This document shows positions 26,249 through 55,724 of a stretch of DNA of 64,000 nucleotides, in pieces. The notes beneath the pieces are model-generated. The model was not told the origin of the DNA and ran no database searches. It saw nothing but the letters and a program-made list of their open reading frames with translations. Numbering within the stretch: the stretch's first letter is position 1; every line of letters begins with the position of its first letter. This DNA comes from an uncultured Elusimicrobia bacterium (GTDB lineage Bacteria > Elusimicrobiota > Elusimicrobia > Elusimicrobiales > Elusimicrobiaceae): NCBI GenBank assembly GCA_947306425.1, contig CAMZGO010000007.1, forward strand, positions 1 to 64,000, read 5' to 3'. Position numbers and translations under genes: made by a program.

Positions 26249-26257
26249 AAAACACAC

Positions 26258-31905: not shown

Positions 31906-31907
31906 AA

Positions 31908-34773: not shown

Positions 34774-34779
34774 AAATAA

Positions 34780-34820
34780 GGCCGCTAAAACTTTTTAGCC
34801 GGAAGTGGGACGCGGCGAGG
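34780..34820 (+). promoter_or_regulatory. structured leader of the capsid gene
   Basis: Two pairings exclude each other: GGCCGCTAAAA with TTTTTAGCC (34780-34800), or GCCGC (34781-34785) with GCGGC (34812-34816), the latter just before the GAGGAG ribosome site. This suggests an RNA element tuning capsid translation or mRNA stability. Confidence 0.4.
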
Positions 34821-34829
34821 AGCAAATAA

Positions 34830-35711: not shown

Positions 35712-35722
35712 GGAGTTAAACA

Positions 35723-36139: not shown

Positions 36140-36203
36140 AGCAACAGTTAAAAGGGGGCGTGATTATGGCGCGCCCCCTATAAAAACACTAAGGAAATAA
36201 AAA

Positions 36204-39430: not shown

Positions 39431-39836
39431 TATAAAACCTTTGAATAGTTTGGCAGATTTAACAAAGCCCTTTTGCGTTCAACAAGCACAAAAGAAAGAA
39501 TTTGATTTGACAATATTTAGCAAAAAGGAATTCTTGCGCTTTGTTATGGAAAACGATAATGAAACGCTTGCTTTGATTTGGTTTTGGAATATGGGACAAG
39601 GGCGTTATGGCGTGGGGTGTTTTTTAAGTGAACATGCCGGAGCGTTTTTCTTAGAGATGAAAACTTTAATTGAAAGGATGTTTGACTTTTACGGCGCTTT
39701 GCGCTATGAGGCAATTTGCCGAACTGATTTTGTAAACGGGCACCGTATGCTTGTTTTACTTGGTTTTGAGAGGGAAGGAACTATGAAAAAATTTATTGAC
39801 GGCGTGAATTACGACTTATATGCGAGGTGTAAATAA
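39423..39836 (+). CDS. GNAT-like internal virion protein (T7 gp13-like)
   Basis: 137 residues from ATG 39423, overlapping the nozzle stop. The end has a GNAT-like stretch (NGHRMLVLLGFEREGTMKKF, DYDLYARCK-like). It is the usual small gene between nozzle and internal virion proteins in T7-like phages. Confidence 0.7.
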   Translation: MVSIKPLNSLADLTKPFCVQQAQKKEFDLTIFSKKEFLRFVMENDNETLALIWFWNMGQGRYGVGCFLSEHAGAFFLEMKTLIERMFDFYGALRYEAICRTDFVNGHRMLVLLGFEREGTMKKFIDGVNYDLYARCK

Positions 39837-40330
39837 TGGCAGGAACAACAGCATTTATAATGGCAGCAACAACTGCTGCGCAAGTGTTAAGCACTTTACA
39901 GCAAGGTAAAGCGCAAGAGCGCGCTTATAACTTGCAAGCAGGTATTGACGAGATAAACGCTAAAAATCAAGCGATAGAAACCTCAATGAACGAAGATACT
40001 TTGCGCAAAGGAAACAGGCAAAAGTTAGCCAAAATTGCCACCGCACAAGGGGAAGCCGGACTTGTTGGCGGAACTGCTACAAATTCTTATATGCAAAGTG
40101 CTATGAACGCCGAACAAGACGCGCTTAATTTACGCTATGCCGGTATGAGCCAATGGCAGAATTATAAAAATAGCGCTGCATTTAATCGTGCTTATGCAAA
40201 AACATCAAGAAGCAACGCTAAAACATCTGCTTTAATGCAAGGTTTAGCCGGAGCCGCGCAAGTGTTAGCATTTGGCGGACCGCGCGGAGTTTTTGGCGAC
40301 GGTATCGCTGCGAAGTTCAAAGGAGTTTAA
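39836..40330 (+). CDS. internal virion protein (T7 gp14-like)
   Basis: 164 residues with hydrophobic N- and C-terminal segments and an Ala/Gln-rich helical middle (QGKAQERAYNLQAGIDEINA; GEAGLVGGTATNSYMQSAM). This is the pattern of the small ejection protein that forms a pore in the outer membrane. Starts at the preceding stop (TAATGG). Confidence 0.8.
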   Translation: MAGTTAFIMAATTAAQVLSTLQQGKAQERAYNLQAGIDEINAKNQAIETSMNEDTLRKGNRQKLAKIATAQGEAGLVGGTATNSYMQSAMNAEQDALNLRYAGMSQWQNYKNSAAFNRAYAKTSRSNAKTSALMQGLAGAAQVLAFGGPRGVFGDGIAAKFKGV

Positions 40331-40331
40331 T

Positions 40332-41996
40332 ATGGCAAATAAAGCACCTATAAACCAATATGAACAAAGAACAATGTTAAACGGGCAAACACTTAATGTG
40401 CCGGTACGCCCGGTTGTTAATAATGTTATGCAAGAAATAGCCGCTGCCGGCAAAGAACTTGGCGGAATTTTGGCAAAACAAAATGATAGAATTGACGCTC
40501 TTAAATTGCGTAATAATGAAGAAAAGTTAAGCATTGAAGTAGCCAAAATGAATAATGAACTTGCACAAGCAGACACAACGGAAAAATTTGATGAAATTGT
40601 TAATTCTTATACCGGAAACATGCAAGCACAAAGTAAAGCCCGCCTTGGTAAGCGTTTATATGGGTTATGGGAAGAAGAAGGTAATAACTATATGGAAGCG
40701 CTTAAAGTGGATATTGCCGGCAAAAGAATTGCGTTAAACAAAAAGGTTGCTTTTGCAAGCGCCAAAGACACTATAAAAGATAAAGCATACTTATACGCTT
40801 ACGGCAACGAAGATGAAAGAAAAGCACAAGACGCTTCCTTTAATCTCTTTTTGAATAAGGAAAAAAATAATTTTACCGAAAGTGAAAAAGATACTTTACG
40901 CCGGACATATAACCACGATAAAGAGTTTGGCTATTTAACACAACTTGTAAACAATGAACCGGAACAAGTGGAAGATTTACTTAAAGATAAAAATAATTTT
41001 AAGAATTTATCCGTCACGGAAAGGGAAAACTTTTTAAGCCATGCGCAAAAAGCAATAAAAGCAAAGAAGGATACTATTTTTGATAAAGGCACAGCCGGGG
41101 AAAGCGGGCTTGCGGAAATAGTGCGTGAGTTTAATGAAACTTACGAAAAGGACCCGGTGGAAGCAGAAAGATTTTATCAAAATTTAGCCGATAATCCTAC
41201 AAAATTAAGCGATACTTACGGCATTAACGGAAGTAAAACTATAAGAAGTTATATGAAAAATGTGCTTGATGAAGGACCTTACGGACGCCAAAAAGAGGAA
41301 CTTTGGGCGGAAACAAAAGTCAAATACCAAAATTTTGATATTAAAGACGGTGTTATACAAAACGATGACATGAACAAAGTGGAAACCATAACAAATATGA
41401 TAGGCGTTATTAACGGAAACGCTGCACAAGGTTTATTTGATAAACATGAGGCAGAAGCAGCCGCTATGGTGGCAAATTTAAGAAGCAATTTAGCCGCCAT
41501 GGTAAAAGACCCTAAAATTGAAAATAAAGTATTTTGGGGGTCAAGCGTTGCCGAAAATATGCCAAAACAAATTAACACTTTTTTGAAACGCAAGGTAAAC
41601 GGAAATTTAAGTGATGAAGGTATCGGCAAAATTTACGAGGACGCTTTTATCGCAGCACAAGCGCAAGGGCTTGACTTAAAAAGCAAAGATACAAAAGTAA
41701 AAGAACAAGCCGGGCAACTTATCCGCCAAGCATTTGAGAGAAACATCCGCGCCGAATATCTTTTGAACGATGAAGAAGCAAACGCCGTTGTTAGTGAAGA
41801 TGATAATGTTTTGCTTGATTTTTCCGACAAAGCAAATAATAAGAGCGCTAAAAAAATTGAAAGCGGACCGATAAAACCAAAGCAAGAACCTAAGTTAGAC
41901 ATTGATGTTAATAAAGCATTGGACGCCTACAAATCTTTAGGAAAAGAATTTGCGGGCATTTGGCAAAACAAAGAACCTTTAATAGGCGGAAAATAA
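40332..41996 (+). CDS. internal virion protein (T7 gp15-like)
   Basis: 554 residues from ATG 40332 (AGGAG upstream), almost wholly helical, Lys/Glu-rich. N-terminal segment LNVPVRPVVNNVMQEIAAAGKELGGILAK is typical of this class. Expected to be ejected with DNA and form a periplasmic tube together with the next protein. Assignment rests on position and composition. Confidence 0.75.
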   Translation: MANKAPINQYEQRTMLNGQTLNVPVRPVVNNVMQEIAAAGKELGGILAKQNDRIDALKLRNNEEKLSIEVAKMNNELAQADTTEKFDEIVNSYTGNMQAQSKARLGKRLYGLWEEEGNNYMEALKVDIAGKRIALNKKVAFASAKDTIKDKAYLYAYGNEDERKAQDASFNLFLNKEKNNFTESEKDTLRRTYNHDKEFGYLTQLVNNEPEQVEDLLKDKNNFKNLSVTERENFLSHAQKAIKAKKDTIFDKGTAGESGLAEIVREFNETYEKDPVEAERFYQNLADNPTKLSDTYGINGSKTIRSYMKNVLDEGPYGRQKEELWAETKVKYQNFDIKDGVIQNDDMNKVETITNMIGVINGNAAQGLFDKHEAEAAAMVANLRSNLAAMVKDPKIENKVFWGSSVAENMPKQINTFLKRKVNGNLSDEGIGKIYEDAFIAAQAQGLDLKSKDTKVKEQAGQLIRQAFERNIRAEYLLNDEEANAVVSEDDNVLLDFSDKANNKSAKKIESGPIKPKQEPKLDIDVNKALDAYKSLGKEFAGIWQNKEPLIGGK

Positions 41997-41997
41997 T

Positions 41998-44900
41998 ATG
42001 GAAGAACAATTTGAAAATAAAGAAAGAACAGTTTATTTATCTTCTACCGGGGATTTTATTAAAACCGATTTAACAAATCCGCGTGAAATAAAATACGCGG
42101 CGGAAATACAACTTGCTAAAAAAGATAGAGATAAATTCTTTGGGCTTAAACCTTTGGAACAAGACCGGGCCGAAATAACAAAAGCCGCCATGGAAGATAA
42201 AGGACGCGGATATTTGAAACAAGCCGGCGCCGGTATTGGCTCTGCTATCGTTAATATGGGGCAAACTGTTTGGAATTGGGCTAAATATACAAATGCAAAC
42301 TTAGTAAATAAAGCATGGCGCAAACTTAATGATTATAGTGCCGATATTTTGAAAGCAACCGGAAGTATTGATGAAGAAACCCGCGCAAACATGATGAACC
42401 AAGTAAACAATAATTATAAAAGCGTGAGGGACATCTTAAATGAAGAAATGTTGTTAAGCCGTGAGAAACAAAACGCTTACCTTGAAAAAACCGGGCTTGC
42501 CAAAAAAGAGGGCGATAGTTTGATTTACGATATTGCCAATGGGGTAGGTTCTGTTGCTGCTGCTCTTGGTGTGGCTATTGTGACCAAAAGCCCAAATGCG
42601 GCTGCGGTGTTGTTTGGCGGTATTGCCGGACAAAGCGGTTATGAGGAAGCATTAGCCGCCGGAATTGAACCGGAAAAGGCATTAAAAGTAGGTAGTGTAA
42701 GGGGGCTTGTAGAAGGAACGCTTGAAAAAATAGGTTTACATTGTTATATTGAAGGACTTAAAACGCGTGGTATTATTACAAGAATTTTGAAAAACGCTGC
42801 TGTGGAAGCAACGCAAGAAATGAGCCAACAAACTGCCGAAGAAATCTTGCAAACAAAATACGGCGGAAGAAAAGAGGATTGGAAACGAGCCGCGGAAGAT
42901 ATACTTTTATCGGGTTTTGTAGGTATGATTGTGGGCGGTGGGTTTAGTGCTGCCGGCGCCGGAACAAATATGATAGAGCAAGAAAACGCCGCGCAAAAAG
43001 ATACTTCTAAAATATCTTTACCTACACAAAAATTGCCGACACAAAATATTGACTTAACTGACGCTTTTGAAAGCGGTGTTAAACGCTTTACTGATTTGGG
43101 TATGCCGGAAAAGGACGCTGCTAAACTTACTTTCTCCTTATTAAAAAAAGCAGCAGAGCCGGAAACGGCAAAGGAAATAGTAGATATGATTAGGGAAGAA
43201 AACTCTAACTTAACCTACTTAAATAACGACGAGGACCAAAATGCCGCCGCTGTGGCTGAAGCGATTAAACAAGCAACCGCACCGGATAGGGTGGTAAAGC
43301 AACAGGCGTTTAATATCGCTGACGAAGTGGAAGAAGGGGCTTTGAAAGCAGGTAGAACGCCTGAAGAAGCGGCGGCAAGTGCAAGTTTAGCACAAAAGGC
43401 AAGCATGGGGTTTTATGAACTAACCGGAGTTTTACCAAAGGACCAAATTCAAATAAAAATTGAAGCCGATAAAGAAGCCGAATTAAACGCTGCAAACGAA
43501 AACGATTTGACAGGCGAAGAAGATATTTCTTTTGATTTTGGATTTACCGAAGAAGAACAACCGGAAATTAAAGAAAGCACCCCGCAAAATTTGGCTATGC
43601 AAGAAGAAGTTAAAAACTTGCAAGAAGAAACAAGGCAAGCACAAGCCCAACAATTATTATTGGAAGGCCCAAAGCAAGCCGCTAACACGGAAGAAATAAA
43701 AGATACCTACACTAATAGTATTTTGGAAAAAAAACAAACCGCGGAAAACGAAGAACAAGCAGAACCGGAAAACAAAGATAAGATAGAGGACGCCGGGGAA
43801 TTTTTACTTGGCAACAAAAAGAAAAACACAAATCTTGTTTGGGAAGATTTTAGCCAAATGAACGACCTTGTAAAAAAAGCAAACATGACAAAGCAGAAGA
43901 TTTATAAAATGCCCGCTTTTGAAGATTTGAAAAAAGAGTATAACTTATCGGACCGTCAAGCCGGATTTGTTATGTATGTTTACTCTAAAATTAACAGCAA
44001 ACCCTCTAAAAGCGTGAGAAATACCGAAGAAAACCAAAAAATGTATGTAGAGGGTGTTAAAAAGGTAATGGATAGCGTGATTAAATACGCACAAGATAAT
44101 AAAAACACTATTGAAGGGTGGCAACCTGCTACAAATTCCTTTATGTACACTATAAAGGATTATGGATTTTTTGATACCTTGTTCCCGGCACGCGGGGAGC
44201 AAGACAAGTATTACAATAGATTTAGCCATAACAAAGATTATAATGATTTGGCTTTGGTTTTGGGTGGCAATAAATTTGTAAGAGCGCTACAAATCCGCGA
44301 CCCGGAAGTAAAAGAAATAGACGCTTTAACGGAAAAATTAAAGAACCCGACACAAAAAACTGCCGGTAAAAAAGCGGACTATGAAAAACTTTTTGCAGTC
44401 GCAAAAGATTATAGCGGTAAATATTTTGTAAGAGGGCTTAAAGAAAAAATTTCTTACTCGGCTGATTTGAGTTTTGATACAAAAGAAGCCGCCGAAGAAT
44501 ATGCAAAAAAACTTTTTGAAATCGTAAAACCGTATTTAGATAACGGTGGCGATATTGTGAGTTTTGCCGGTTTAAGAAAAGGTATTGAAAGAAGAAAACC
44601 TAATGAAAATATTGACGCACAAGGGCTTATTGATACCTTCGGCTTTAGAGGTGTTAATTTTGGAAATTGGACCAAACAAAGCGAACGCCAAGAGTTCTTA
44701 AACTTAACTTATGACAGTTTATTTGATTTGGCTGAAATATTAAATGTTCCGCCGGAAGCATTAAGTTTTGGCGGCACTTTAGGGCTTGCATACGGGGCGC
44801 AAGGCCAAAGAGGTGCGGCAGCGCATTTTATACCTCAATATAACGAAATTAACCTTACAAGAAAAAACGGCATGGGAAGTTTGGCGCATGAGTGGTTCCA

Positions 44901-47900
44901 TGCGTTGGATTATTATTTTGGCAATATTGCACAAGGTAAAGATTTTAGCGGCAAAAACATTTTAGACGAAAGACAAGCCGGCGGAGTGCGCCCGGAAGTT
45001 TTCGCGGCTTTTGAGAACTTACGCAAAGCGATGACTAAAAAGCCCGCAACTTTGGAAGAACTTGAAAAGGCAAAAGAAAATGTAATTAAAAATAATAAGT
45101 CAAGGATAGAATTTTACATTGAGGACTTAAAACAAGTTTTTAGAAATGAAAAGAACTTGGATAAAATGGTTAAAATCGCCCAACAAATAGGCGAAGAAAC
45201 CGACCTTTCACAAGAAAAATTCTCAAAATATGCGACGGAATATTTGCAACTTATTAGAGAAAGCAGAAGGAAAAGTTCCGACGATATAACTATGACGAGG
45301 CACTTACATTGGATTGACAGTGCTGCAAGAGGTATAAAAAGAGCAAAAGAAATGACGGAACTTTTGCAAGATACGGAGTTTTTGAAAGAAGCCCGCGCGT
45401 TAGATAAAAATAATAATCACAAAAAAGCGTATTTTACAAAAAATACCGAAATGGGCGCCCGCGCTTTTACTGCCTATGTCTTAGATAAAATGGAAGAAAA
45501 AGAGCAGCAGAACTTCTTTTTAACACATAAAGACCGAAAAGAAGTAGATATTTTGGCGTGGCTCAAAGAAGAACAACGGGCAGCAGGTAAAAACGAAAAA
45601 GAACCGGACATGAAAGATTTTATGCTTAATTGGAGCCCTGTTATACCGGAAGAAAGAAAAGCAATAATTAAAGCGTTTGATAACTTATTTGAAACCTTAA
45701 AAACAAAAAAGACGGACAAAGGGATAACTTTTTATCAATCAGGGAAAGACACAAGGGTAAATAAACCCGTTCCTGCTGCAAAAGATACCGTTATAAAGCC
45801 CGTTTTAATTGAAAAGGGTGTTCCTAATTTTGGCAGTGTTAAAGAACTCAAAGAATATCTTTTTAATGATTTGAAGGTATTAAATGATATAGAAGTCAAA
45901 TCCGTTGGGACTACTTTACATTTTGGCGAGCATGAAGTAAGAAGGGGATTAAAAAATGCCCGGAGCAAAACACAAAATCAATTCTTTGCTGATTTGAAAA
46001 AGGCAGTAGGAAACGCTCAATATGTAAGGTTTGAGCCGGCAGACGCTGCTCATCCAAATGTAGCCGGACAAGATATATATTATACCGCAATTAAAATAGG
46101 CAACGATATTTATGCTATTAGAATTAAGGCGGATGTCGCTTTACAACAAAAAAGCAACTTGTATAATTACGCCGGACATAAAGTTATTGACATAAAAAAA
46201 TATCAGGGCATAGACACTGATTTAACAGTTTATAACCCTGATACTATAAGTATAGCACAATTTGATGAAATTTTCAAGACCCAAAAATTAAACCAAGACG
46301 AAGAAAACCCGCGCGGGAGCGTCACTTTTGCGGATGATATTAAACAGGCATTTATTAAGTTTAATAATACAGCAGACAAATCAACGCTTATACATGAACT
46401 AGGCCATATTTGGCTTAAAGATATTGAGCAATTTTCTGCCATTTCCCAAAAGCCGGAGTTCTTGGAGTTTAAGGAAAATTTGGATAAATGGCTTGGCGAA
46501 CCGGTAAACGGTGTTTACTCGGTAGAACAGCAGGAAAAATTCGCTAAAACCTTTGAGCGTTATTTGCAAGAAGGTAAAGCGCCTAATGCTGAACTTAAAA
46601 CAATTTTTGAGAAATTCAAAGCATGGTTAAGTGAAATCTATACGGCTGTAAAAGATTTTATACAACTTTCCCCGGAAGCCGTAAAAACTTTTGACACTTT
46701 ATTATCTACTGAAAGAGGTAAATATAATTTGGAAAATATCCGCAATAAAACCGCGCAAGCAAAAGCGGTGGTGGAAAAGATTAAAAAAGGACAGGCGGTA
46801 TCTATTGACGGTATAACGATTAAAGATATTAAAGAAGCACTTAAAGTTATGAATAGCCGTATGCCCGCTGAACCAAAAGAAAATCTATTGCGTGTTTTAC
46901 GCCGTAAAGGTGCTGATTATGCTAATGCCGGTAAGATTGATAAAGAGGCATATAAAAATGCTTATGTGCCTAATAAAAAAGACGGCATACAAGACGGCTT
47001 GGCTTTAACCTTACGCGATTGGGGTTTTATGGCCTTTGATGATAGTGCGGTGGCAGATTATGAAGGCCTTTCCAAGCAAGAAGAAATAGCCGCGGATTTA
47101 ATTGATAGAGCGCTAAACGGCGAAAAAATCTATCAAGTAAATGACCCGCAAGCCGCCAAGCGTGAACAGTTTTTAGCCGATGTGGAAAAAGCCCGCGAAA
47201 TAGTGGGCGAAAACGGCGAAGAAATTGCCCGTGCTATTGCTGCACTTGAAGAAAAAGGATATAGGATTATTGAAAAAGAGGATATTAACTATTTGGCAAG
47301 GCAATTAAAAGAACTTGACCGCATTGTAGAGAAAAGTCAAATTTTGGAAAGCCAAGAAGAAAAGGAAAAAGGCAACAAAGAATTTGAGAAGATGAAAAAA
47401 CAAACGGCCCTTGAAGCACGCCGTATCAAAGCAGCGGTTATTGAAGAACTTAATAAACGCGATATTGCCGGCAAAAGCACGATGTTTGCCGTTTTGGAAA
47501 AAGCACAAACACCGGAAGAAATCTTTACTGCTGCGGCTGATATTTTAACCGAAATCAGCAGAGAATTTGAAAAAACGGAAGAAGGCCAAGCCGAACAACG
47601 CAAGATTGATGTTCCTAAAACCGATTGGGAAGCCAAGAGGGTAAACCTTCTCAAAGAACTTGCAGAAATAAGCGCAAATGCAACAAAAGAAGAACGCGCC
47701 GCAAGAAATATGATAGAGCAAGCCCGCCAAGCCCGACACGGAGCAAGAGCGGCTTTAAGCAAAAAAGAACTTGCCGAATATGAAAAGGCAAAAAGTTTTT
47801 TAAGCAAGAGTTTTGAAAAGAAATATCTAAAAGCATTTAATAACGCTTTGCGCGGGGAGCCGCATATTGAAGGTAAAGATGTCGCTTCAATTATGCGCGT

Positions 47901-50541
47901 TATGGCAAATAATGCTATGGAAATGCGCCTTATAAGCGACCATATTGTTAAACAATTTATCAGTATTGCGCAAAGGAAACAAACGGCAAATTACAAAAAA
48001 TATTTGTCCGGCAAGATTTCCGCATTACTTAATAACAAGATTTTTGCCAAAGTGGGCCAACTGCGCCGCGCAAAGTTTACCCCCGAAATTATGGAATTTA
48101 TGAAACATGCAAAAGAGATTTGGGGGCTTACAAATAAAGACGCCGAAAAGGAATATGATTTTAGGGCCAAGAGTTATGACCCCGAAAATCCACCAAGCCC
48201 GGTGCAAGCATTTGAAAACCGCTTGCTTGAATTTAAGGTTTTATGGGACACACAAGACCCCGCGGACGCAAAAGGCCTTTATGATGAACTTTTGGACCTT
48301 TTAAGAGGGGACAGGCAACTTAAACGCTTTGAAGAAGCAAAAAAACAATTTAATGAAAGCGGAAGGCGCTTAATTTTGACACAAGCACTTAAAGAGAAGA
48401 AATTACCGGTAGGAACAAAGGCGTATTTGTTGCATGCCGGCACTGATTTGCAAAGTGCTTTAGATGTTTTGTTTGGTAAATTTGAATATGAAACTATGGG
48501 CTATGACGGTAAAATGCACAAAGAAATATTTAATGCACGCGAAGAATTTGCCGGCGAATTAGACCAAATTGAAGAACAAAATTTCTTGCACCATTATAAC
48601 ATGGCGCTTGATGAAAGTGTGCGTTCTGCCTACGGACTTGATACAAAGTTCCAAATGTTTGATAAGATTAAAGAACTTTTGGACTATAAAAAAGAAGTTA
48701 TAAATTACGGTTTTATTAAAGATACTGAAAACGGAGCGATGATTGCTTCCATTTTCCGTAATGGCAAATGGGTAAACAATAATAATCCGCGCAAGCAAAC
48801 CTTAAATAAATTAAACATAATTTATGACTATATACAAAGCCAAAACCACGAGTATGTAGAAACAGCGGAAGGCATAAAAGATGTTGGCTACGCTGCGCGC
48901 TTGGAGCGTTCTTATGGTAAGGAACAATTAAATGATATGTTTGCATGTTTAACAGACCAAGACCGCAAACTTGCTGATAGTTTAATTGAACTTGCCTCTA
49001 AATTTTACCCGGAATTAAACAAGGTACATAAAAGAATTTACGGTTTTGCTTTGCCAAAAACCGAAGGCGTGTATTTTCCGGGCGTGACCGAAAGAATTGC
49101 CGATGATGTGGATTGGCACGCTGATTTTGTAGCAAACAGCAAAAGCCCTTCTTTTATCAAAGAGCGTGTTAAAAGCAATAAGCCGGTTATGGCGCTTGTA
49201 AACCCGTTGGCTGTATTAAAAGCACATGGCAGAAGGTCTGCGGAATTTATTTATAACGCGGAAAGGTTTACCGAGTTAAAACGCATGTTTAAGGCAGAAG
49301 AAATGAAAACCGCATTTGTGGAAAAGTTCGGGCAAAATGACGGTATAGAACTTTACCAAAAAATGCTGCGTTTAATTGATTTACAGGGACCTCAAAAAGC
49401 CCAAGCAAAAGGGGAGTTTTTTAAGGTGTCTGATAAAATCTTTAATAATTGGGTAAAAACCGCTATGGGCTTAAAAATTATGACAGGTATTAAACAGGTG
49501 GCTTCCGGCATTTCTTTTGCGGAAAAAATGCCCGCTGCTACTTATACCAAGTATTTTGCCGAAGCCATGGCGCACCCGGTGCAAACTATGGACTTTATGA
49601 ATAAAACATTTCCATATATTGAAACACGCTTTGAAACGGGCGGTATCAATGAGGCGGTAGCGCGTGCTATGGCAAGAAACGATATTTCCGCTATGGGCGA
49701 AAAGTTTAGCATGATTACCAATTTGGGCTTACTTAATACAAGATATGGCGATAAATTAAGTATATCTTTGTTCGGGCAACCTTATTATAGGTATTTAAGG
49801 GAAGATTTGAAATTACCGGAAGATAAGGCAAAAGCGGAGTTTTTAAGACAAGCAACAACCACTTTGCAAAGTTCGTTAAAATCACAATTAAGTGAAGCGC
49901 AAAGCGTGGCTGATAACTTCGCAACCCGTGTTTTTATGGTGTTTAGAAACCAACAATTACAATATGTGCGTAAAGCGTTTACGACATACGCGCAATATAA
50001 AAACGGGGAACTTTCCGCAAAGCAATTTGCTAAAGCAGAGTTTATTTATTTAGTGCTTAACCCGCTTGTTTATGTGGCTTTGGGTATTGGATTTATACCG
50101 AGAGATGATGATGATAAAAAACGCTTGGCGGCTGCACCTATAACGCAAACTTTGGGCGCTTATCCGTTTGGCGAAGCAACTGCCGAACTTTTTGTGGATA
50201 ATGTTTATTCCATGTTTAAGGATAAAGAATTAACCGCACCGCAAAAAATGGGCTTACCGATGATAGACGATATTGTAAAAGACATAACCCGCGCCGTCAA
50301 AACAGTCAATGAAGATGATTTAACGGCAGAAGATTATGTGGACGCAACGCTCGGTATTGCCAAATACTCCGGCTTACCGTTAAATACATTAAAGAGCATG
50401 ATTAAAGGCGGGGTGGATATTACAAAAGGTAAACCGGCAAAGGGCGCTTTGGAAGTTATCGGCTACACGGAAACCCGCGCCGGTAAAATAGTAGGCGAAG
50501 AAAAGAAGAAAAAGAAAAAAAGAAAACGCCGGAAGAAATAA
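41998..50541 (+). CDS. giant internal virion / polyvalent ejection protein
   Basis: 2847 residues. Order: N-terminal segment shared with the prophage membrane protein (residues 20-60), helical and acidic linkers to about 620, polyvalent-type domains, a first metallopeptidase motif HEWFH (964-968), a PBECR-like nuclease or toxin-like region (about 1281-1402), a second motif HELGH (1466-1470), long helical stretches with Lys/Glu, and a C-terminal part with a hydrophobic segment near 2680-2705 and a Lys/Arg tail. This is the architecture of polyvalent proteins injected with phage DNA. In gene order it takes the place of T7 gp16. Individual enzymatic roles are inferred only. Confidence 0.82.
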   Translation: MEEQFENKERTVYLSSTGDFIKTDLTNPREIKYAAEIQLAKKDRDKFFGLKPLEQDRAEITKAAMEDKGRGYLKQAGAGIGSAIVNMGQTVWNWAKYTNANLVNKAWRKLNDYSADILKATGSIDEETRANMMNQVNNNYKSVRDILNEEMLLSREKQNAYLEKTGLAKKEGDSLIYDIANGVGSVAAALGVAIVTKSPNAAAVLFGGIAGQSGYEEALAAGIEPEKALKVGSVRGLVEGTLEKIGLHCYIEGLKTRGIITRILKNAAVEATQEMSQQTAEEILQTKYGGRKEDWKRAAEDILLSGFVGMIVGGGFSAAGAGTNMIEQENAAQKDTSKISLPTQKLPTQNIDLTDAFESGVKRFTDLGMPEKDAAKLTFSLLKKAAEPETAKEIVDMIREENSNLTYLNNDEDQNAAAVAEAIKQATAPDRVVKQQAFNIADEVEEGALKAGRTPEEAAASASLAQKASMGFYELTGVLPKDQIQIKIEADKEAELNAANENDLTGEEDISFDFGFTEEEQPEIKESTPQNLAMQEEVKNLQEETRQAQAQQLLLEGPKQAANTEEIKDTYTNSILEKKQTAENEEQAEPENKDKIEDAGEFLLGNKKKNTNLVWEDFSQMNDLVKKANMTKQKIYKMPAFEDLKKEYNLSDRQAGFVMYVYSKINSKPSKSVRNTEENQKMYVEGVKKVMDSVIKYAQDNKNTIEGWQPATNSFMYTIKDYGFFDTLFPARGEQDKYYNRFSHNKDYNDLALVLGGNKFVRALQIRDPEVKEIDALTEKLKNPTQKTAGKKADYEKLFAVAKDYSGKYFVRGLKEKISYSADLSFDTKEAAEEYAKKLFEIVKPYLDNGGDIVSFAGLRKGIERRKPNENIDAQGLIDTFGFRGVNFGNWTKQSERQEFLNLTYDSLFDLAEILNVPPEALSFGGTLGLAYGAQGQRGAAAHFIPQYNEINLTRKNGMGSLAHEWFHALDYYFGNIAQGKDFSGKNILDERQAGGVRPEVFAAFENLRKAMTKKPATLEELEKAKENVIKNNKSRIEFYIEDLKQVFRNEKNLDKMVKIAQQIGEETDLSQEKFSKYATEYLQLIRESRRKSSDDITMTRHLHWIDSAARGIKRAKEMTELLQDTEFLKEARALDKNNNHKKAYFTKNTEMGARAFTAYVLDKMEEKEQQNFFLTHKDRKEVDILAWLKEEQRAAGKNEKEPDMKDFMLNWSPVIPEERKAIIKAFDNLFETLKTKKTDKGITFYQSGKDTRVNKPVPAAKDTVIKPVLIEKGVPNFGSVKELKEYLFNDLKVLNDIEVKSVGTTLHFGEHEVRRGLKNARSKTQNQFFADLKKAVGNAQYVRFEPADAAHPNVAGQDIYYTAIKIGNDIYAIRIKADVALQQKSNLYNYAGHKVIDIKKYQGIDTDLTVYNPDTISIAQFDEIFKTQKLNQDEENPRGSVTFADDIKQAFIKFNNTADKSTLIHELGHIWLKDIEQFSAISQKPEFLEFKENLDKWLGEPVNGVYSVEQQEKFAKTFERYLQEGKAPNAELKTIFEKFKAWLSEIYTAVKDFIQLSPEAVKTFDTLLSTERGKYNLENIRNKTAQAKAVVEKIKKGQAVSIDGITIKDIKEALKVMNSRMPAEPKENLLRVLRRKGADYANAGKIDKEAYKNAYVPNKKDGIQDGLALTLRDWGFMAFDDSAVADYEGLSKQEEIAADLIDRALNGEKIYQVNDPQAAKREQFLADVEKAREIVGENGEEIARAIAALEEKGYRIIEKEDINYLARQLKELDRIVEKSQILESQEEKEKGNKEFEKMKKQTALEARRIKAAVIEELNKRDIAGKSTMFAVLEKAQTPEEIFTAAADILTEISREFEKTEEGQAEQRKIDVPKTDWEAKRVNLLKELAEISANATKEERAARNMIEQARQARHGARAALSKKELAEYEKAKSFLSKSFEKKYLKAFNNALRGEPHIEGKDVASIMRVMANNAMEMRLISDHIVKQFISIAQRKQTANYKKYLSGKISALLNNKIFAKVGQLRRAKFTPEIMEFMKHAKEIWGLTNKDAEKEYDFRAKSYDPENPPSPVQAFENRLLEFKVLWDTQDPADAKGLYDELLDLLRGDRQLKRFEEAKKQFNESGRRLILTQALKEKKLPVGTKAYLLHAGTDLQSALDVLFGKFEYETMGYDGKMHKEIFNAREEFAGELDQIEEQNFLHHYNMALDESVRSAYGLDTKFQMFDKIKELLDYKKEVINYGFIKDTENGAMIASIFRNGKWVNNNNPRKQTLNKLNIIYDYIQSQNHEYVETAEGIKDVGYAARLERSYGKEQLNDMFACLTDQDRKLADSLIELASKFYPELNKVHKRIYGFALPKTEGVYFPGVTERIADDVDWHADFVANSKSPSFIKERVKSNKPVMALVNPLAVLKAHGRRSAEFIYNAERFTELKRMFKAEEMKTAFVEKFGQNDGIELYQKMLRLIDLQGPQKAQAKGEFFKVSDKIFNNWVKTAMGLKIMTGIKQVASGISFAEKMPAATYTKYFAEAMAHPVQTMDFMNKTFPYIETRFETGGINEAVARAMARNDISAMGEKFSMITNLGLLNTRYGDKLSISLFGQPYYRYLREDLKLPEDKAKAEFLRQATTTLQSSLKSQLSEAQSVADNFATRVFMVFRNQQLQYVRKAFTTYAQYKNGELSAKQFAKAEFIYLVLNPLVYVALGIGFIPRDDDDKKRLAAAPITQTLGAYPFGEATAELFVDNVYSMFKDKELTAPQKMGLPMIDDIVKDITRAVKTVNEDDLTAEDYVDATLGIAKYSGLPLNTLKSMIKGGVDITKGKPAKGALEVIGYTETRAGKIVGEEKKKKKKRKRRKK
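42079..42116 (+). repeat. 38-bp inverted duplicate, copy B
   Basis: Identical to the reverse complement of 22893-22930. Codes residues 28-40 of the giant protein (PREIKYAAEIQLA). Confidence 0.9.
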
Positions 50542-50574
50542 TTTGAAGTGAAAATTAACATAAGGAGTAAAAAC

Positions 50575-50874
50575 ATGATACTTGTAGACAAAGCAAACAA
50601 TATAGAGAACAAAAGCGTTGTTCTTGCTGACATAGCACATTATGGCGGTAGAAGAACTGACGCCGTTAGTGTTCTTGCAACGGGGACTTTTACCGGTACG
50701 CCGAAATTACAAATGTCCCTTGACGGTACTAACTTTGTACCTTTACTTAACAGCGACGGGGACCAAGTGGAACTAACCGCCGATACGCCTGTACACTTGA
50801 GGTCTGCCAATGTTTGGGTCAAGGTAGATTTAACCGGTGTATCCTCAAGTGACTTAAAAATTGAAATTGCCTAG
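50575..50874 (+). CDS. small beta-rich virion protein
   Basis: 99 residues from ATG 50575 (AAGGAG upstream). Strand-forming repeats (VSVLATGTFTGTPKLQMSLDG, HLRSANVWVKVDLTG) suggest an Ig- or jelly-roll-like tail component. It directly precedes the DGR target gene. Confidence 0.6.
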   Translation: MILVDKANNIENKSVVLADIAHYGGRRTDAVSVLATGTFTGTPKLQMSLDGTNFVPLLNSDGDQVELTADTPVHLRSANVWVKVDLTGVSSSDLKIEIA

Positions 50875-50883
50875 GGGGATAGT

Positions 50884-52335
50884 ATGAGCGATATTTTATA
50901 TAGCAGTTTAGTATTATCTTCCAAGGCGGACAGTGGTGGCGGTTCTTCCGATAACCAAGATTTACTTGGCGTAAGTTTTGACGGAACTAATGCTGCCGGC
51001 ACAAGGACTTATGGCGCGGCTGATTTAAGTTTTACAAAATCCACTGACGCCGCTGCCGGTACAGACCCATTTAGAGATAATCCGATTTATCAAGGTTATT
51101 ATGTATTGGTAAAATATAACAGCACTACACAAAAAGCGGAAATTGTTGCTTATGAAGGCACTAAAAAATATGACGATATGATTACCGCTAATGAAGAAGA
51201 TTTTGATGTGGTGCGTATGTTTCCACTTTTTTACTTCAAACATATTATTGATAGTCAAGGTAAAATTCAAATAGTTTTAAGCAAGACGGCAAAAACAGGG
51301 TTTAAGCCCTCGCCTATGCACTACCGGAACGGCGTTTTGCATGAGTGGATAGGTATAACCCGTTATGCTTGGGGAAATGCCGGAAGTGGGACTATTGCCT
51401 CTCGTGCCGGTTTATATCCTTTAACAAATACTACCCGTGCAGATTTTGAAACAAAAGCCCGCGCACGCGGTATGCGTGTATTTGGTATGAAGGAACTTTC
51501 CGCCTTGCAAATGCTTGGCGCGGTTAAATATGCAAATTTGAATTGGCAAACCGCAATAGGTCCGGGCTTTACCGAAGCACCGGCAACGGATAGAACCGTG
51601 ACCGTTGCACAAGAAAATGCCAATAGCGTGATTTTATCCGCTTCGTATGCGGCAGATTTCCCGGTTGGAGCGTCAATATATTTAGCGTCAAATGACTTTC
51701 GCACTATTACCGCTAATGAAACTTATAGCGAAGATGACACGATGATAGAAGTGTCTTTTGGCGGTTCGCCTTTTACTTCCACAACTTCCACAAAAGTACA
51801 TGGCGGACTTGCAATTAACGGCTCTGCTGACGCGGTAAAAGGGCTTGACGGGCAAAATACATCAATGCATACATCCGGTGGGCGCCGTTCAATTATAACT
51901 TTGGGTATTGAAAATCTTTTTGGCAACTGTTGGAAATTTTTAACCGACACAATGCGCATGAACGGAACATCCGTTTCTTATTTTAACCCGGACCCGGACG
52001 GCGATAACACATACCCGGAAGATAGTAATTTAAGAGGGTGGCAAGCCGGACCTACCATATTGACGACGGAAGGATATATTAAACGCTTTACCCCTACTTA
52101 TAGTTTGGGCGATTTGACGCATTTATCTATACCGGCGGAACTTGGCGGAAACCAAAGTAATCCGGTTGGCGATTATCAGTATAGCAACGCCGCAACTGAG
52201 CGCAAATGCTGTTTATTTGGCGGGGGCCTCGGCCTCGGGGCCGTTGCCGGCCCGTTCTTCTTGGTTTGGCGCAGCGGGCTCGGCGTTAGCTGGTGGTATA
52301 TCGGGGCGCTCGGCGTGTTTATACCTGATTTGTAG
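50884..52335 (+). CDS. DGR target protein, variable tail receptor-binding protein (putative)
   Basis: 483 residues. N-terminal beta-rich virion-attachment region, then from about residue 110 a C-type-lectin/formylglycine-enzyme-like domain: MKELSALQMLGAVKYANLNWQ, IENLFGNCWKFLTD and the final GP.. W..RLG.. WNNGALG-type core. The last 38 residues (446 onward) are the variable repeat. Seventeen codons there carry adenine in the template and differ in this gene. Likely sits at the tail tip and binds the host; the ligand is unknown. The stop at 52333-52335 is outside the template-matched segment. Confidence 0.9.
   Translation: MSDILYSSLVLSSKADSGGGSSDNQDLLGVSFDGTNAAGTRTYGAADLSFTKSTDAAAGTDPFRDNPIYQGYYVLVKYNSTTQKAEIVAYEGTKKYDDMITANEEDFDVVRMFPLFYFKHIIDSQGKIQIVLSKTAKTGFKPSPMHYRNGVLHEWIGITRYAWGNAGSGTIASRAGLYPLTNTTRADFETKARARGMRVFGMKELSALQMLGAVKYANLNWQTAIGPGFTEAPATDRTVTVAQENANSVILSASYAADFPVGASIYLASNDFRTITANETYSEDDTMIEVSFGGSPFTSTTSTKVHGGLAINGSADAVKGLDGQNTSMHTSGGRRSIITLGIENLFGNCWKFLTDTMRMNGTSVSYFNPDPDGDNTYPEDSNLRGWQAGPTILTTEGYIKRFTPTYSLGDLTHLSIPAELGGNQSNPVGDYQYSNAATERKCCLFGGGLGLGAVAGPFFLVWRSGLGVSWWYIGALGVFIPDL
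52219..52317 (+). repeat. DGR variable repeat (VR)
   Basis: It aligns without gaps to 52433-52531 (offset 214). Of 99 positions, 24 differ and all 24 are A in the template; the other 4 template A are kept and no C, G or T differs. The GC-rich end (52302-52315) matches the template perfectly and is the expected initiation-of-homing site. Confidence 0.95.
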
Positions 52336-52353
52336 GGTAGCGCTTTAGCGCGA

Positions 52354-52373
52354 AGGGGAGTGAAAACTCCCCT
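52354..52373 (+). promoter_or_regulatory. DGR target-site hairpin with GAAA loop
   Basis: A perfect 8-bp stem AGGGGAGT/ACTCCCCT with a GAAA tetraloop, 36 bases after the VR. In phage BPP-1 a hairpin of this size and loop type downstream of VR is needed for efficient target recognition. Small stems GCGC/GCGC (52340-52351) and GCCCT/AGGGC (52374-52385) flank it. Confidence 0.8.
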
Positions 52374-52432
52374 GCCCTAAAGGGCAAAGTAGTTTTGTAG
52401 TAAGTAGTAAAAGCAGTAGGGTAAGTGTTTGG

Positions 52433-52531
52433 AGCGGGAACCTCGACAACAGGGCCAATGCCGGCCCGTTCTACTTGAATTGGAACAACAGGCTCGGCAA
52501 TAACAGGTGGAATAACGGGGCGCTCGGCGAA
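52433..52531 (+). repeat. DGR template repeat (TR)
   Basis: Non-coding copy of the VR. Read in the VR frame it gives SGNLDNRANAGPFYLNWNNR and then LGNNRWNNGALGE. Most adenines lie in AAY codons, which can mutate to many residues but never to a stop. It lies 98 bases after the target gene and ends 131 bases before the reverse transcriptase start. Confidence 0.95.
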
Positions 52532-52662
52532 CTATAATCAGTAGTAAAAAAAAGAAGTGCCAACACGGACCTTGCCTCTTGGCAAAAATAATGTCGCAAC
52601 AGGTGTGTTTGGTAGGCCGTTGTAAGTTTGTAAGGTTCGAAGAACATGCAGATTATAACACT

Positions 52663-53682
52663 ATGAAAAGAATAGGATATATATTAACCGAAGAAAAACT
52701 TTCTTTAGATGTTTGTAAGACGGCAATATTAAAAGCCGCAAGACATAAACATAAAAGAATTAGCGTTGCTAAAATACTTTCACGCTTAGATGAAAAAGCA
52801 GCGCTACTGAGGGAAATTATCCTTGAAGAAAAATACAAGCCGGCAGAATATAAGGTTTGTCATATAATAGACCACCCTTCACAAAAAGAGCGGTTATTAC
52901 ATAAACCGAAATTTTTCCCGGACCAATGTATACACCATGTTATAATTTTGTTGCTACATAAAGAACTTTTGAAGCGGTTTGACCCTTATGTTATTGCTTC
53001 TATACCAAAGCGGGGCGCTCATTACGGGCATAGAGCGCTCCGCAAATGGCTTGAGCGTGATAGAACCGGAACAAAATACTGCTTAAAATGTGATATTAAA
53101 AAATGTTATGACAATATACGCCCGCCGGTTGTTGTTGCTGCTGTGGCGCGATTTGTTAAAGATAAAAAGTTTTTACGGCTTATTGCAAAGGTTGCCTATT
53201 CCCTTCCTAGTTTGCCACTAGGAAACTATACAAGCGGTTGGTTTGAAAACTTGGTTTTATGTCCTTTAGATAGGGCTTTAAGAGCAAATAAATATGTTGT
53301 CCGGTATTTAAGATATGTGGATGATTTTATTGCTCTTGGACCTAATAAAAGGAAATTAAGGCAACTTATAGATTATATTTCCGGTATTTTGGCTAAACTA
53401 GGTTTGCGATTAAAAGAAAATTGGCAAGTGTTTAAGGTGGATGAGAGAGGTATTGATATTATTGGGTATAGGTTTTACAGGAATTTTATATTGCTTAGAA
53501 AAAGAAATTTGCTTTCCCTTATGCGTTGTATAAGGGCATACAAAAAACATCCTACGGCAAAACTTGCAAAAAGTTTGCTTTCCCGGATTGGTATGTGCAA
53601 ATGGTTTAACAGCCATAATTTTTGGAAGAAGTATTGTTTGGACTTAAATTTTAGAAAAATGAAACGGAGGGCCTACACATGA
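52663..53682 (+). CDS. DGR reverse transcriptase
   Basis: 339 residues from ATG 52663, where the family-typical MKRIG start lies; upstream in-frame starts at 52579 (TTG) and 52591 are possible. RT motifs: KPKFFPDQCIHH, ASIPKRGAHYG, the catalytic D144 in KCDIKKCYDN, LGNYTSGWFENL (motif 4) and catalytic YVDD at 218-221. It copies TR RNA with errors at adenines. Motif 4 normally reads GxxxSQ; here it is S191-G192. Its stop overlaps the next gene (ATGA). Confidence 0.93.
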   Translation: MKRIGYILTEEKLSLDVCKTAILKAARHKHKRISVAKILSRLDEKAALLREIILEEKYKPAEYKVCHIIDHPSQKERLLHKPKFFPDQCIHHVIILLLHKELLKRFDPYVIASIPKRGAHYGHRALRKWLERDRTGTKYCLKCDIKKCYDNIRPPVVVAAVARFVKDKKFLRLIAKVAYSLPSLPLGNYTSGWFENLVLCPLDRALRANKYVVRYLRYVDDFIALGPNKRKLRQLIDYISGILAKLGLRLKENWQVFKVDERGIDIIGYRFYRNFILLRKRNLLSLMRCIRAYKKHPTAKLAKSLLSRIGMCKWFNSHNFWKKYCLDLNFRKMKRRAYT

Positions 53683-54149
53683 GAATAGGTATTGACGGAT
53701 ACTACCCACAAGACGGGGTAGAAGTAAAAGAAACAAACGGAGTGCTGGCTATAACTTTATATGCAGACATCGAGCGTACGCCGGCACAAGAACCGGGGCA
53801 AGAAATAATTACCGCAAATGTAGTTAATTTAACTTTGCCCTTAGGCAGCGTGGAAAAAGCGGATATTGTGTCAAATTTCCAATATTACTTTGATAAAGCG
53901 TTAGCCCAAGAACTCGCAAAAGCAAAAGAGATTGCCATTATTCCGGTGCAAACCCTTTTGACTGATACGGACTATAAAGCGCACAAGGTTGTGGACGGCG
54001 TTCTTTCAGCGCAAGATTATGAGCCATGGAAGAACTTACGGCAGCATTGGCGTGATACTATTAACGCTATGCAAAACGCTGCTACTTATGAGGAATTGGC
54101 CGCTATTACTTACGCGAAAACGCCGGGTGAGTTAAATGAACAAAATTGA
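53679..54149 (+). CDS. tail-associated / assembly protein (putative)
   Basis: 156 residues. The C-terminal half has the pattern DTDYKAHKVVDG....DYEPWKNLRQHWRDTINAM, typical of small tail-fibre assembly or DUF4376-like proteins. It is coupled to the RT gene. It does not look like the four-helix Avd accessory protein of other DGRs. Confidence 0.6.
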   Translation: MRIGIDGYYPQDGVEVKETNGVLAITLYADIERTPAQEPGQEIITANVVNLTLPLGSVEKADIVSNFQYYFDKALAQELAKAKEIAIIPVQTLLTDTDYKAHKVVDGVLSAQDYEPWKNLRQHWRDTINAMQNAATYEELAAITYAKTPGELNEQN

Positions 54150-54375
54150 CTTTAATATTATTTGGAAAGTCGTTGTTGTCGTTTTTGCTGCCGGGATGTT
54201 CTATATGCAAGTATTGGCTATACGCCAAGATTTAGAGCGTATGGACGCAAAATTTGACCGGCTTGAGCAAAAAGTGGAAAAGCATAATAACTTTGACCGT
54301 CGTATTATAAAACTTGAAACTATGCTTGAAATAAAAAAGGGGAATTTTGCTTATGATAAATTGGCAGAAAACTAA
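54136..54375 (+). CDS. membrane-anchored coiled-coil protein, lysis region
   Basis: 79 residues: one membrane segment (IIWKVVVVVFAAGMFYMQV, about 8-26) followed by a heptad-like helix (LERMDAKFDRLEQKVEK). Overlaps the tail gene by 14 bases and the endolysin by 23. It may be a holin-associated or pinholin-like protein; uncertain. Confidence 0.55.
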   Translation: MNKIDFNIIWKVVVVVFAAGMFYMQVLAIRQDLERMDAKFDRLEQKVEKHNNFDRRIIKLETMLEIKKGNFAYDKLAEN

Positions 54376-54772
54376 GTATTTAATAAAAAAACATGAGGGT
54401 AAAAGTTTAACTCTTTATAAGTGTCCTGCCGGTAAATTAACTATTGGCTACGGGCATAATATTGAGGATAGAGGTATTTCCGATGAGGTTGCTGAAAAAC
54501 TGCTTGAACAAGACGCACAAATCGCTTATAAGCAAGTTAAAAACAATATCTCATGTTTTGATACTCTTGATGAAGCCCGACAGTATGTTTTAATTGATAT
54601 GTGTTTCAATATGGGTTTAAGCCGTTTGATGACCTTTAAGAAAATGCTTCTTGCTTTGGAAAAAGGGTTATACCAAAATGCAGCCGATGAAATGTTAGAT
54701 AGTAAATGGGCAAAACAAGTTAGTCGGCGTGCAGAGTTTTTGGCACAAATTATGCGAACAGGTATTTGGTAG
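54353..54772 (+). CDS. endolysin, GH24 lysozyme
   Basis: 139 residues from ATG 54353 (GGGG upstream). T4-lysozyme-type pattern: catalytic Glu15 in KKHEGKSLTLYKCPAGKLTIGYGHNI, and FDTLDEARQYVLIDMCFNMG further on. No signal peptide, so release depends on a holin. Cuts peptidoglycan glycan strands. Confidence 0.9.
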   Translation: MINWQKTKYLIKKHEGKSLTLYKCPAGKLTIGYGHNIEDRGISDEVAEKLLEQDAQIAYKQVKNNISCFDTLDEARQYVLIDMCFNMGLSRLMTFKKMLLALEKGLYQNAADEMLDSKWAKQVSRRAEFLAQIMRTGIW

Positions 54773-54774
54773 TT

Positions 54775-54870
54775 ATGAAACAAGGTATTTGTTTGCACTG
54801 CAAATGGCAATATACTTGTGAGTATTACAATGAAAATAAAAGCATTTGCAATAGATTTGAGAACAAATAG
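54775..54870 (+). CDS. small Cys4 protein
   Basis: 31 residues from ATG 54775, three bases after the endolysin stop. Cys at 6, 9, 15 and 25 (CxxC x5 C x9 C), ending CNRFENK. The next gene carries the same Cys spacing in the +1 frame. Confidence 0.5.
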   Translation: MKQGICLHCKWQYTCEYYNENKSICNRFENK

Positions 54871-55009
54871 TTTTTGTTTAGGTTGTAATAAATTTGTTGC
54901 TTGCCCTAGCAAGACGGAATTAAAAGTTTTTTGCAACTCTTTCCAAAAAGGAAAAAGTTGGCACCCGGAAATCCGGCAAGTGTTAGGAAAAACCGAACAC
55001 TTCAAATAA
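54830..55009 (+). CDS. small Cys4 protein, +1 frame
   Basis: 59 residues if ATG 54830 is used (GTG 54818 is also possible). The core is CLGCNKFVACPSKTELKVFC, with exactly the Cys spacing of the preceding gene, followed by a basic tail. The start overlaps the first gene in another frame; alternatively both are one product joined by frameshifting near 54868. Confidence 0.45.
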   Translation: MKIKAFAIDLRTNSFCLGCNKFVACPSKTELKVFCNSFQKGKSWHPEIRQVLGKTEHFK

Positions 55010-55025
55010 TTAAGGAGTAAAAATT

Positions 55026-55241
55026 ATGCTAACATTATTACTAACTATATGGGCTTGGTTAAAAGCGCACTTCCTTGAAATTGTGGCCTTATGGACCACA
55101 ATTATTGGCGCTGCGGAAATCATTGTCAAATGGACCGATAGCAAGAAAGATGATGAATACCTTGGCAAAATCCGTGCCTTTGGTGTTAAAATCATCTCAT
55201 GGCTTACAAAGTTTGGCTTTGAAGAACCTAAGGTAAAATAA
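55026..55241 (+). CDS. holin-like membrane protein
   Basis: 71 residues, hydrophobic N-terminal half (LLLTIWAWLKAHFLEIVALWTTIIGAAEIIV) and a charged C-terminus. AAGGAG upstream, in the lysis cassette, so a holin role is plausible but not proven. Stop overlaps the next start. Confidence 0.55.
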   Translation: MLTLLLTIWAWLKAHFLEIVALWTTIIGAAEIIVKWTDSKKDDEYLGKIRAFGVKIISWLTKFGFEEPKVK

Positions 55242-55456
55242 TGACTTGGATATATATAGTTGCCCCCCTGGTAGTGGTTTTATTTATATTTGCCGCATAC
55301 CTCGGGGGCAAATCCGCCGGTCGGAAAGAAGCCGAATTAAAACAAAAAACGAAGGAGCAAAAGGCACATGAAGAAGCCACTAAAATTATTAACAATAACA
55401 ATAATCTTTCTAATGCTGCTATTGATACTTGGTTGCAAGAGCGCGCAAATAAATAG
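55241..55456 (+). CDS. i-spanin (Rz-like)
   Basis: 71 residues: N-terminal membrane anchor (WIYIVAPLVVVLFIFAAYLGG) and a charged helical periplasmic part (GRKEAELKQKTKEQKAHEEA). A lipoprotein gene starts inside it in another frame, the Rz/Rz1 arrangement. Confidence 0.7.
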   Translation: MTWIYIVAPLVVVLFIFAAYLGGKSAGRKEAELKQKTKEQKAHEEATKIINNNNNLSNAAIDTWLQERANK

Positions 55457-55562
55457 CCCTGTTTGTCAAGTACAGTTTGATTTAAGTGATAAAGGACTAT
55501 TTGACCTTAACTTGCAGAACAAACGCGCTATAAAGAGTTTTTGCGAAATCTGCGGTAAATAG
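55368..55562 (+). CDS. o-spanin lipoprotein (Rz1-like)
   Basis: 64 residues. Starts 127 bases into the i-spanin gene in the +1 frame. Signal and lipobox LLILGC (Cys23), then a short mature part. Together with the i-spanin it would fuse inner and outer membranes at the end of lysis. Confidence 0.7.
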   Translation: MKKPLKLLTITIIFLMLLLILGCKSAQINSPVCQVQFDLSDKGLFDLNLQNKRAIKSFCEICGK

Positions 55563-55563
55563 G

Positions 55564-55583
55564 TGTGGCTCTTAGTGTGGCTC
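55564..55583 (+). promoter_or_regulatory. possible integrase arm sites (right)
   Basis: Two TGTGGCTC copies (55564-55571 and 55576-55583), 12 bases apart, match one copy inside the left end at 20763. The 130 bases from here to attR contain no gene, as expected for attP sequence. Confidence 0.4.
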
Positions 55584-55712
55584 CTTTATGGTTTACTGTG
55601 CGTTTAGTGCGTGCGAAAAGAAACAATAATTTTTTTATTTTTTTACGACGATAAAAATGCTAAAAAACGCTTTTTATTCTTAAAAATGCTCCTAAACAAA
55701 AATCCAATAAAA

Positions 55713-55724
55713 ACGCCCCCTAGG
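55713..55724 (+). other. attR core (prophage right end)
   Basis: ACGCCCCCTAGG, identical to 20727-20738. It covers the discriminator base and acceptor end of tRNA-Glu, so integration restores the tRNA. Confidence 0.75.

What the first reader, a model, noticed from the sequence alone, without database searches (positions are those of the whole stretch)
50884..53682. Complete diversity-generating retroelement in an Elusimicrobium-like temperate podovirus
Seen: VR 52219-52317 and TR 52433-52531 align without gaps over 99 bases; 24 differences, all at template adenines (28 in total). All 17 adenine-containing codons have changed, while the target frame stays open. An RT with YVDD follows. Known: adenine-specific TR-to-VR transfer defines DGRs, and a C-type-lectin-fold target on a phage tail is the BPP-1 pattern. 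Inferred: the phage diversifies its receptor-binding protein in a gut Elusimicrobiota host, and the element was recently active.
Basis: partly seen in the sequence, partly recalled or inferred. Interest (0 to 1): 0.85.

Follow-up and report, generated by a model that had tools for sequence, protein, structure and literature searches.

The report
Phage retroelement diversifying a tail protein
A virus dormant in the genome of a gut bacterium (Elusimicrobiaceae) carries a known kind of device, a diversity-generating retroelement, which copies a template RNA sloppily at its adenines and pastes the result into the tip of a tail protein; the device is real and has worked since this virus split from a close relative, but it is a well-known kind of system in an under-sampled host.

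Summary
VR 52219-52317 and TR 52433-52531 align without gaps; all 24 differences fall on the 28 template adenines (hypergeometric p about 3e-19). It is a genuine diversity-generating retroelement (DGR) in a roughly 35-kb T7-like prophage, apparently integrated at a tRNA-Glu gene of an Elusimicrobiaceae genome.

Added evidence: the RT falls among phage DGR RTs, apart from group II introns. The target model's best solved match is the DGR variable protein TaqVP (Z 19.6), then Mtd. An 8-bp, GAAA-loop hairpin of the BPP-1 type lies 3' of VR. The TR-RT spacer belongs to Rfam RT-17. In an Elusimicrobiaceae relative (87% target identity) all 8 TR changes are mirrored in its own VR; VRs differ at 16 of 27 shared adenines and 0 of 64 other bases, so transfer has happened since they diverged. 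Related phages with identical TR and flanks differ in VR almost only at TR adenines.

Refinements: no Avd gene was found; the last two "mutated" adenines look like fixed IMH/IMH* differences; receptor binding is inferred. The same genome carries a second, unrelated DGR. Verdict: new member of a known kind.

The parts
20728..55724 (.). Prophage of about 35 kb; probable att core CGCCCCCTAGG at 20728 and at the 3' end of tRNA-Glu (55714)
   Evidence: 15-nt match with 1 mismatch, 20727/55713; integrase next to the left copy; tRNA-Glu 55713-55786
20793..21800 (-). Integrase
   Evidence: phrog_1, 4e-59
31908..33548 (+). Head-tail connector/portal
   Evidence: phrog_332, 2e-111
36204..39430 (+). Two tail (tail-tubular type) proteins, the podovirus signature
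   Evidence: phrog_394 6e-55, phrog_9239 'tail tubular protein' 1e-19, phrog_376 6e-171
50884..52335 (+). DGR target: 483-aa tail protein with C-type-lectin-type variable domain
   Evidence: phrog_5302 tail protein 1e-34; model matches TaqVP 5vf4, Z 19.6, 267 residues
52219..52317 (+). Variable repeat (VR); strict repeat 52220-52315
52302..52315 (+). G/C-rich, adenine-free 3' tail of VR (CGGGGCGCTCGGCG), IMH-like
   Evidence: 13 of 14 bases G/C, identical in TR and VR
52354..52373 (+). Target-site hairpin/cruciform: 8-bp stem AGGGGAGT/ACTCCCCT, GAAA loop, starting 38 bp after 52315
   Evidence: DNA fold z about -4.5 on both strands for a 60-nt stretch around it; identical in G014 although the bases just upstream diverged
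52433..52531 (+). Template repeat (TR); no adenine change in the target frame can create a stop; about 5e15 possible proteins
52568..52672 (+). Structured DGR spacer RNA, member of Rfam RT-17 (RF03020)
   Evidence: 43.0 bits against cut-off 40.4; hairpin covariation
52663..53682 (+). Reverse transcriptase (339 aa from the likely ATG; YVDD)
   Evidence: PF00078 4e-12, phrog_1423 6e-71, best solved match 8ub7 (328-aa reverse transcriptase) 1e-20, tree

Best explanation
This is a phage-borne diversity-generating retroelement that works like the BPP-1 element. The TR and the downstream structured spacer RNA (RT-17 type) are transcribed. The spacer recruits the RT and primes cDNA synthesis. The RT misincorporates opposite TR adenines. 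The mutated cDNA is pasted over the VR at the 3' end of the tail-protein gene, guided by the G/C-rich IMH-like tail and the GAAA hairpin beyond the stop codon. TR stays unchanged while VR is rewritten in frame, so the C-terminal lectin-type face of the tail protein changes, most likely altering which surface the phage can bind. Shown here: TR/VR adenine specificity, transfer since divergence from a relative, RT family, target fold (model), hairpin, spacer RNA family, prophage setting. Inferred: the biochemical steps (from BPP-1), receptor binding, current activity in this lysogen, and working without a recognisable Avd.
For: Adenine-only TR/VR differences. Across 25 TR/VR pairs (this phage and relatives, some of them near-duplicates) 424 of 655 template adenines changed against 11 of 1,909 other bases. 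8 of 8 TR changes between this phage and G014 mirrored in VR; VR-VR differences 16 of 27 at shared adenines, 0 of 64 elsewhere. Pairs with identical TR and flanks, VR differences at TR adenines: L012/L013 19 of 20, L010/L011 12 of 12, L026/L064 17 of 17. RT inside a 100/100-supported clade of phage DGR RTs, away from group II introns. Target model matches TaqVP (Z 19.6), then Mtd (Z about 7). Hairpin fits the published rule of 7-10 bp and GRNA loop (PMC3240598). Spacer RNA hits RF03020, in the same place as the RF03022 Phage_DGR hit in BPP-1.
Against: No bAvd homologue (PF22296) near the RT, in the genome or in 11 related records, while the BPP-1 control rings; Avd is needed in BPP-1 (PMC12875486). 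Activity of this very copy is not observed: no reads or transcripts. The hairpin lies 36-38 bp after the VR, just outside the published 4-34 bp range, and most relatives do not have the exact GRNA form. The C-terminal part of the model has only moderate confidence (block pLDDT about 59-83).
Confidence: 0.96

Rival explanations
1. The DGR is a relic: it diversified VR in the past but is now silent in this lysogen, for example because a missing accessory factor or transcription no longer supports it.
For: No Avd found; no read data; a related target in G031 survives without any detectable DGR RT.
Against: RT, TR, spacer RNA, hairpin and target frame are all intact; TR changes were copied into VR after the split from G014; Avd-lacking relatives show fresh VR variation on identical backgrounds.
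Confidence: 0.15
2. VR is an ordinary duplicated segment that diverged by point mutation and gene conversion, and the adenine bias comes from selection for non-asparagine codons.
For: Asparagine codons dominate the changed sites.
Against: Zero changes at 71 non-adenine bases including synonymous sites; 8 of 8 TR changes mirrored in VR; the same pattern in at least ten related phages next to an RT.
Confidence: 0.005
3. The RT belongs to a group II intron or retron and lies next to the repeats by chance.
For: Shares the general RT fold, with sub-threshold hits to group II and retron models.
Against: Group II RTs form a separate 100/100 clade; TIGR04416 scores 74.6 against a cut-off of 300; the nearest RTs sit beside their own adenine-biased TR/VR. 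Retrons were not put in the tree.
Confidence: 0.005

Closest known systems
BPP-1 mtd/avd/TR/brt DGR of Bordetella phage (AY029185)
   Same: Order target-VR-TR-RT, adenine-specific TR/VR, G/C-rich VR end, 8-bp GAAA hairpin after the stop codon, structured spacer RNA between TR and RT, lectin-fold tail target
   Different: avd lies between mtd and TR in BPP-1 and is not found here; the spacer RNA matches RF03020, not RF03022; the RTs are in different parts of the tree
DGRs of Firmicutes phages and hosts: Lactobacillus phage LBR48, Butyrivibrio phage Arawn, Salirhabdus euzebyi, Erysipelotrichaceae SIG219
   Same: Same RT clade (100/100); no annotated avd gene beside the RT in the LBR48 and Arawn records; RT-18 spacer RNAs in LBR48, Salirhabdus and Erysipelotrichaceae
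   Different: RT identity only about 36-39%; different hosts and targets; no TR/VR pair was found in the LBR48 stretch
Thermus aquaticus variable protein TaqVP (5vf4)
   Same: DGR-diversified protein; best structural match, Z 19.6 over 267 residues
   Different: 18% identity over the alignment; not a close sequence relative
DGR in Elusimicrobiaceae MAG RGIG1630 (goat abomasum), contig JAFQAA010000024.1
   Same: Same element: RT 88%, target 87%, same hairpin, same kind of spacer RNA
   Different: Different VR and 8 different TR bases, each mirrored in its own VR

Membership tests
Diversity-generating retroelement | TR/VR pair differing almost only at TR adenines | tested here: met
   24 of 24 differences at adenines, p about 3e-19
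Diversity-generating retroelement | RT of the DGR class next to TR | tested here: met
   Tree against group II introns; best solved match 8ub7; retrons not included
Diversity-generating retroelement | Target gene with VR near its 3' end and C-type-lectin-type fold | tested here: met
   VR ends 6 codons before the stop; TaqVP Z 19.6 on a predicted model
Diversity-generating retroelement | TR-to-VR transfer in nature | tested here: met
   Mirrored TR changes, 8 of 8; identical-background VR variants in relatives
Diversity-generating retroelement | RT-dependent mutagenic retrohoming by experiment | not testable with these tools
   Needs culture or reconstitution
BPP-1-type DGR | Hairpin after VR, 7-10 bp GC-rich stem, GRNA loop | tested here: met
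   8 bp, GAAA; but 36-38 bp from the VR end, marginally outside the published 4-34 bp
BPP-1-type DGR | Avd accessory protein | tested here: not met
   PF22296 absent near the RT, in the genome and in 11 relatives; BPP-1 control positive. A very divergent Avd is not excluded
Rfam RT-17 (RF03020) | Covariance-model score above gathering cut-off | tested here: met
   43.0 against 40.4 bits
Group II intron RT | TIGR04416 score above cut-off, clade membership | tested here: not met
   74.6 against 300 bits; outside the clade
T7-like podovirus prophage | Connector, tail tubular and internal virion proteins, integrase, repressor, att sites | tested here: met

The most novel reading that the evidence does not exclude
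A clade of compact phage DGRs (this phage, the IMG/VR relatives and Firmicutes phages) that retrohomes without Avd, the RT acting with the RT-17/RT-18 spacer RNA alone or with a host-supplied factor in Avd's place.
Probability: 0.3. Interest if true: 0.45.

Novelty: new member of a known kind. Interest (0 to 1): 0.3.

Why it matters
I found no paper in the searched library that describes a DGR in Elusimicrobiaceae phages. The element gives a clean natural test: two related prophages whose templates changed at 8 bases and whose VRs followed each time. It suggests that receptor diversification by RT reaches phages of this small-genome gut lineage. The lack of a recognisable Avd across the relatives makes 'can a DGR work without Avd?' testable on a compact system. 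Otherwise it confirms established biology.

Tried and rejected
Phage records in GenBank: no nucleotide match to 50000-55000 and no protein match to the target. Exact searches of IMG/VR for the hairpin and for the spacer found nothing, so within-species VR variation of this exact phage could not be measured. Remote VRs in the genome: none. Pfam gives no domain for the target, so the fold rests on the model. The weak Pfam match of the downstream gene 53679-54149 to Peptidase_M15 (E 0.0065, below cut-off) was not used. The conserved hairpin in the TR-RT spacer looked new at first; Rfam shows it is RT-17/RT-18. A group II intron or retron origin of the RT was considered and rejected. VIA-align listing no other fold at high Z is not taken as evidence against other folds.

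Full report
OBSERVATION. A blind repeat search returns the pair as the longest repeat of the area. An adenine-tolerant scan of the whole genome finds only VR and TR. Substituting TR adenines in the target frame can never produce a stop codon and allows about 5e15 proteins.

REFINEMENTS. The strict repeat is 52220-52315. It ends in a 14-nt adenine-free tail with 13 G/C (CGGGGCGCTCGGCG). The two following 'changed' adenines read TG in this phage, in G014 and in L003, and relatives show similar fixed TR/VR differences at the same place, so they look like IMH/IMH* differences rather than hypermutation. The RT most likely starts at ATG 52663.

SETTING. Integrase (20793-21800, minus strand), repressor, DnaB-like helicase, terminase, connector, major head protein, tail-tubular-type proteins, internal virion protein and lysozyme mark a T7-like temperate podovirus. 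A 15-nt near-match (1 mismatch) links 20727 with the 3' end of tRNA-Glu at 55713, giving a prophage of about 35 kb. The window's genome is 1.44 Mb. A same-genus genome (G014) carries the same element on a 7,270-base contig; the named record of that contig is Elusimicrobiaceae bacterium RGIG1630 from goat abomasum. The host is therefore an Elusimicrobiaceae relative; the exact genus was not named.

RT. Pfam RVT_1 and phrog_1423 match. Among solved structures the best match is 8ub7, a 328-aa reverse transcriptase (E 1e-20); group II maturases and related RTs follow at 1e-8 or weaker. That 8ub7 is the Bordetella DGR RT is my own knowledge; the length fits brt. In a maximum-likelihood tree the window RT sits in a 100/100 clade with DGR RTs of Firmicutes phages and hosts; group II intron RTs form their own 100/100 clade. 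Retrons were not included in that tree.

TARGET. The 483-aa protein matches phrog_5302 (tail protein) but no Pfam family. The AlphaFold2 model (18-row alignment, mean pLDDT 73.6) matches TaqVP, a known DGR variable protein, at Z 19.6 over 267 residues, and Mtd variants at about Z 7. Viral models matched best include tail collar fibre proteins. The lectin-type assignment is well supported; receptor binding is inferred.

CIS ELEMENTS. After the target stop codon lies AGGGGAGT-GAAA-ACTCCCCT (52354-52373): an 8-bp stem with the GAAA loop found in BPP-1 (DNA fold z -4.5 and -4.7 on the two strands). Guo et al. (PMC3240598) give 7-10 bp GC-rich stems, GRNA loops and 4-34 bp spacing; here the spacing is 36-38 bp. 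The hairpin is unchanged in G014 although the bases just upstream diverged. Between TR and RT the RNA 52568-52672 matches Rfam RT-17 above its cut-off. Relatives match RT-17 or RT-18 at the same place. BPP-1 matches RF03022 Phage_DGR there. The first hairpin of this RNA shows compensatory changes at three of its four pairs.

ACTIVITY. Against G014, all 8 TR differences are mirrored in the respective VRs (a TR adenine is allowed any VR base). At 64 shared non-adenine columns the VRs never differ; at 27 shared adenines they differ 16 times. Transfer has therefore happened since those phages diverged. In the wider RT clade, pairs with identical TR and no flanking differences over 1.5 kb upstream and 1 kb downstream (L012/L013, L010/L011, L026/L064) differ in VR at 20, 12 and 17 positions, of which 19, 12 and 17 are TR adenines. 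Over 25 pairs, some of them near-duplicates, 424 of 655 template adenines changed against 11 of 1,909 other bases; the pair finder tolerates adenine mismatches and penalises others, so this total is partly shaped by how the pairs were found.

ACCESSORY PROTEIN. PF22296 (bAvd) recognises the BPP-1 protein (E 7e-36; 2e-37 in the whole BPP-1 record) but nothing next to this RT, in this genome or in 11 related records. Some of those records are fragments, and a divergent Avd is not excluded. Avd is required in BPP-1 (PMC12875486), so the working of this element without it is the one open mechanistic point.

VERDICT. A real phage DGR with good evidence of transfer since divergence from a relative. 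It is a new member of a known kind in an under-sampled host lineage.

Noticed in passing
G000:C15, locus L054 (C15:8000-22000): RT L054 5814-7154 minus; TR about C15:15294-15409, VR about C15:15452-15567; target L054 7438-9135 minus: The same genome holds a second, unrelated DGR in another phage-like contig: 17 of 17 TR/VR differences at adenines, RT with YCDD. Its closest phage RT is 59% identical over 320 aa, in a virus assigned to Methanosarcinales (vir525), and the two are sisters in the tree.
   Followed up: partly
L053 (G031:C18), 2491-5013: A homologous target domain (55% identity) fused to a longer phage tail protein in another genus of the family, with no TR/VR pair and no DGR-type RT match in that genome: a possible fixed descendant or ancestor of the diversified protein.
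   Followed up: partly
L014 and L015 (IMGVR_UViG_3300028832_000128, 75.6 kb): One viral contig carries two separate DGRs of the same RT clade about 37 kb apart; two joined phages or one phage with two DGRs.
   Followed up: no
window 21800-22198, minus strand: A partial second integrase-like ORF directly beside the full integrase (phrog_1, 3e-14), perhaps a decayed duplicate.
   Followed up: no
window 41998-50541: A single 2,847-aa phage ORF upstream of the target, matching only PHROGs of unknown function in its first 1,334 aa.
   Followed up: no
window 57308-57871 and 58145-58681: Two type IV pilin-like host genes with an almost identical N-terminal start just outside the prophage.
   Followed up: no
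L056 566-635 (G058, same order): Match to the 2dG-II purine riboswitch (74.2 bits against cut-off 60) on a contig of another member of the order, near another DGR.
   Followed up: no
L004/L008, L012, L017/L018: In several relatives the region after VR lacks the exact GRNA-loop hairpin; stems and loops vary and L017/L018 show none in a perfect-stem scan.
   Followed up: partly
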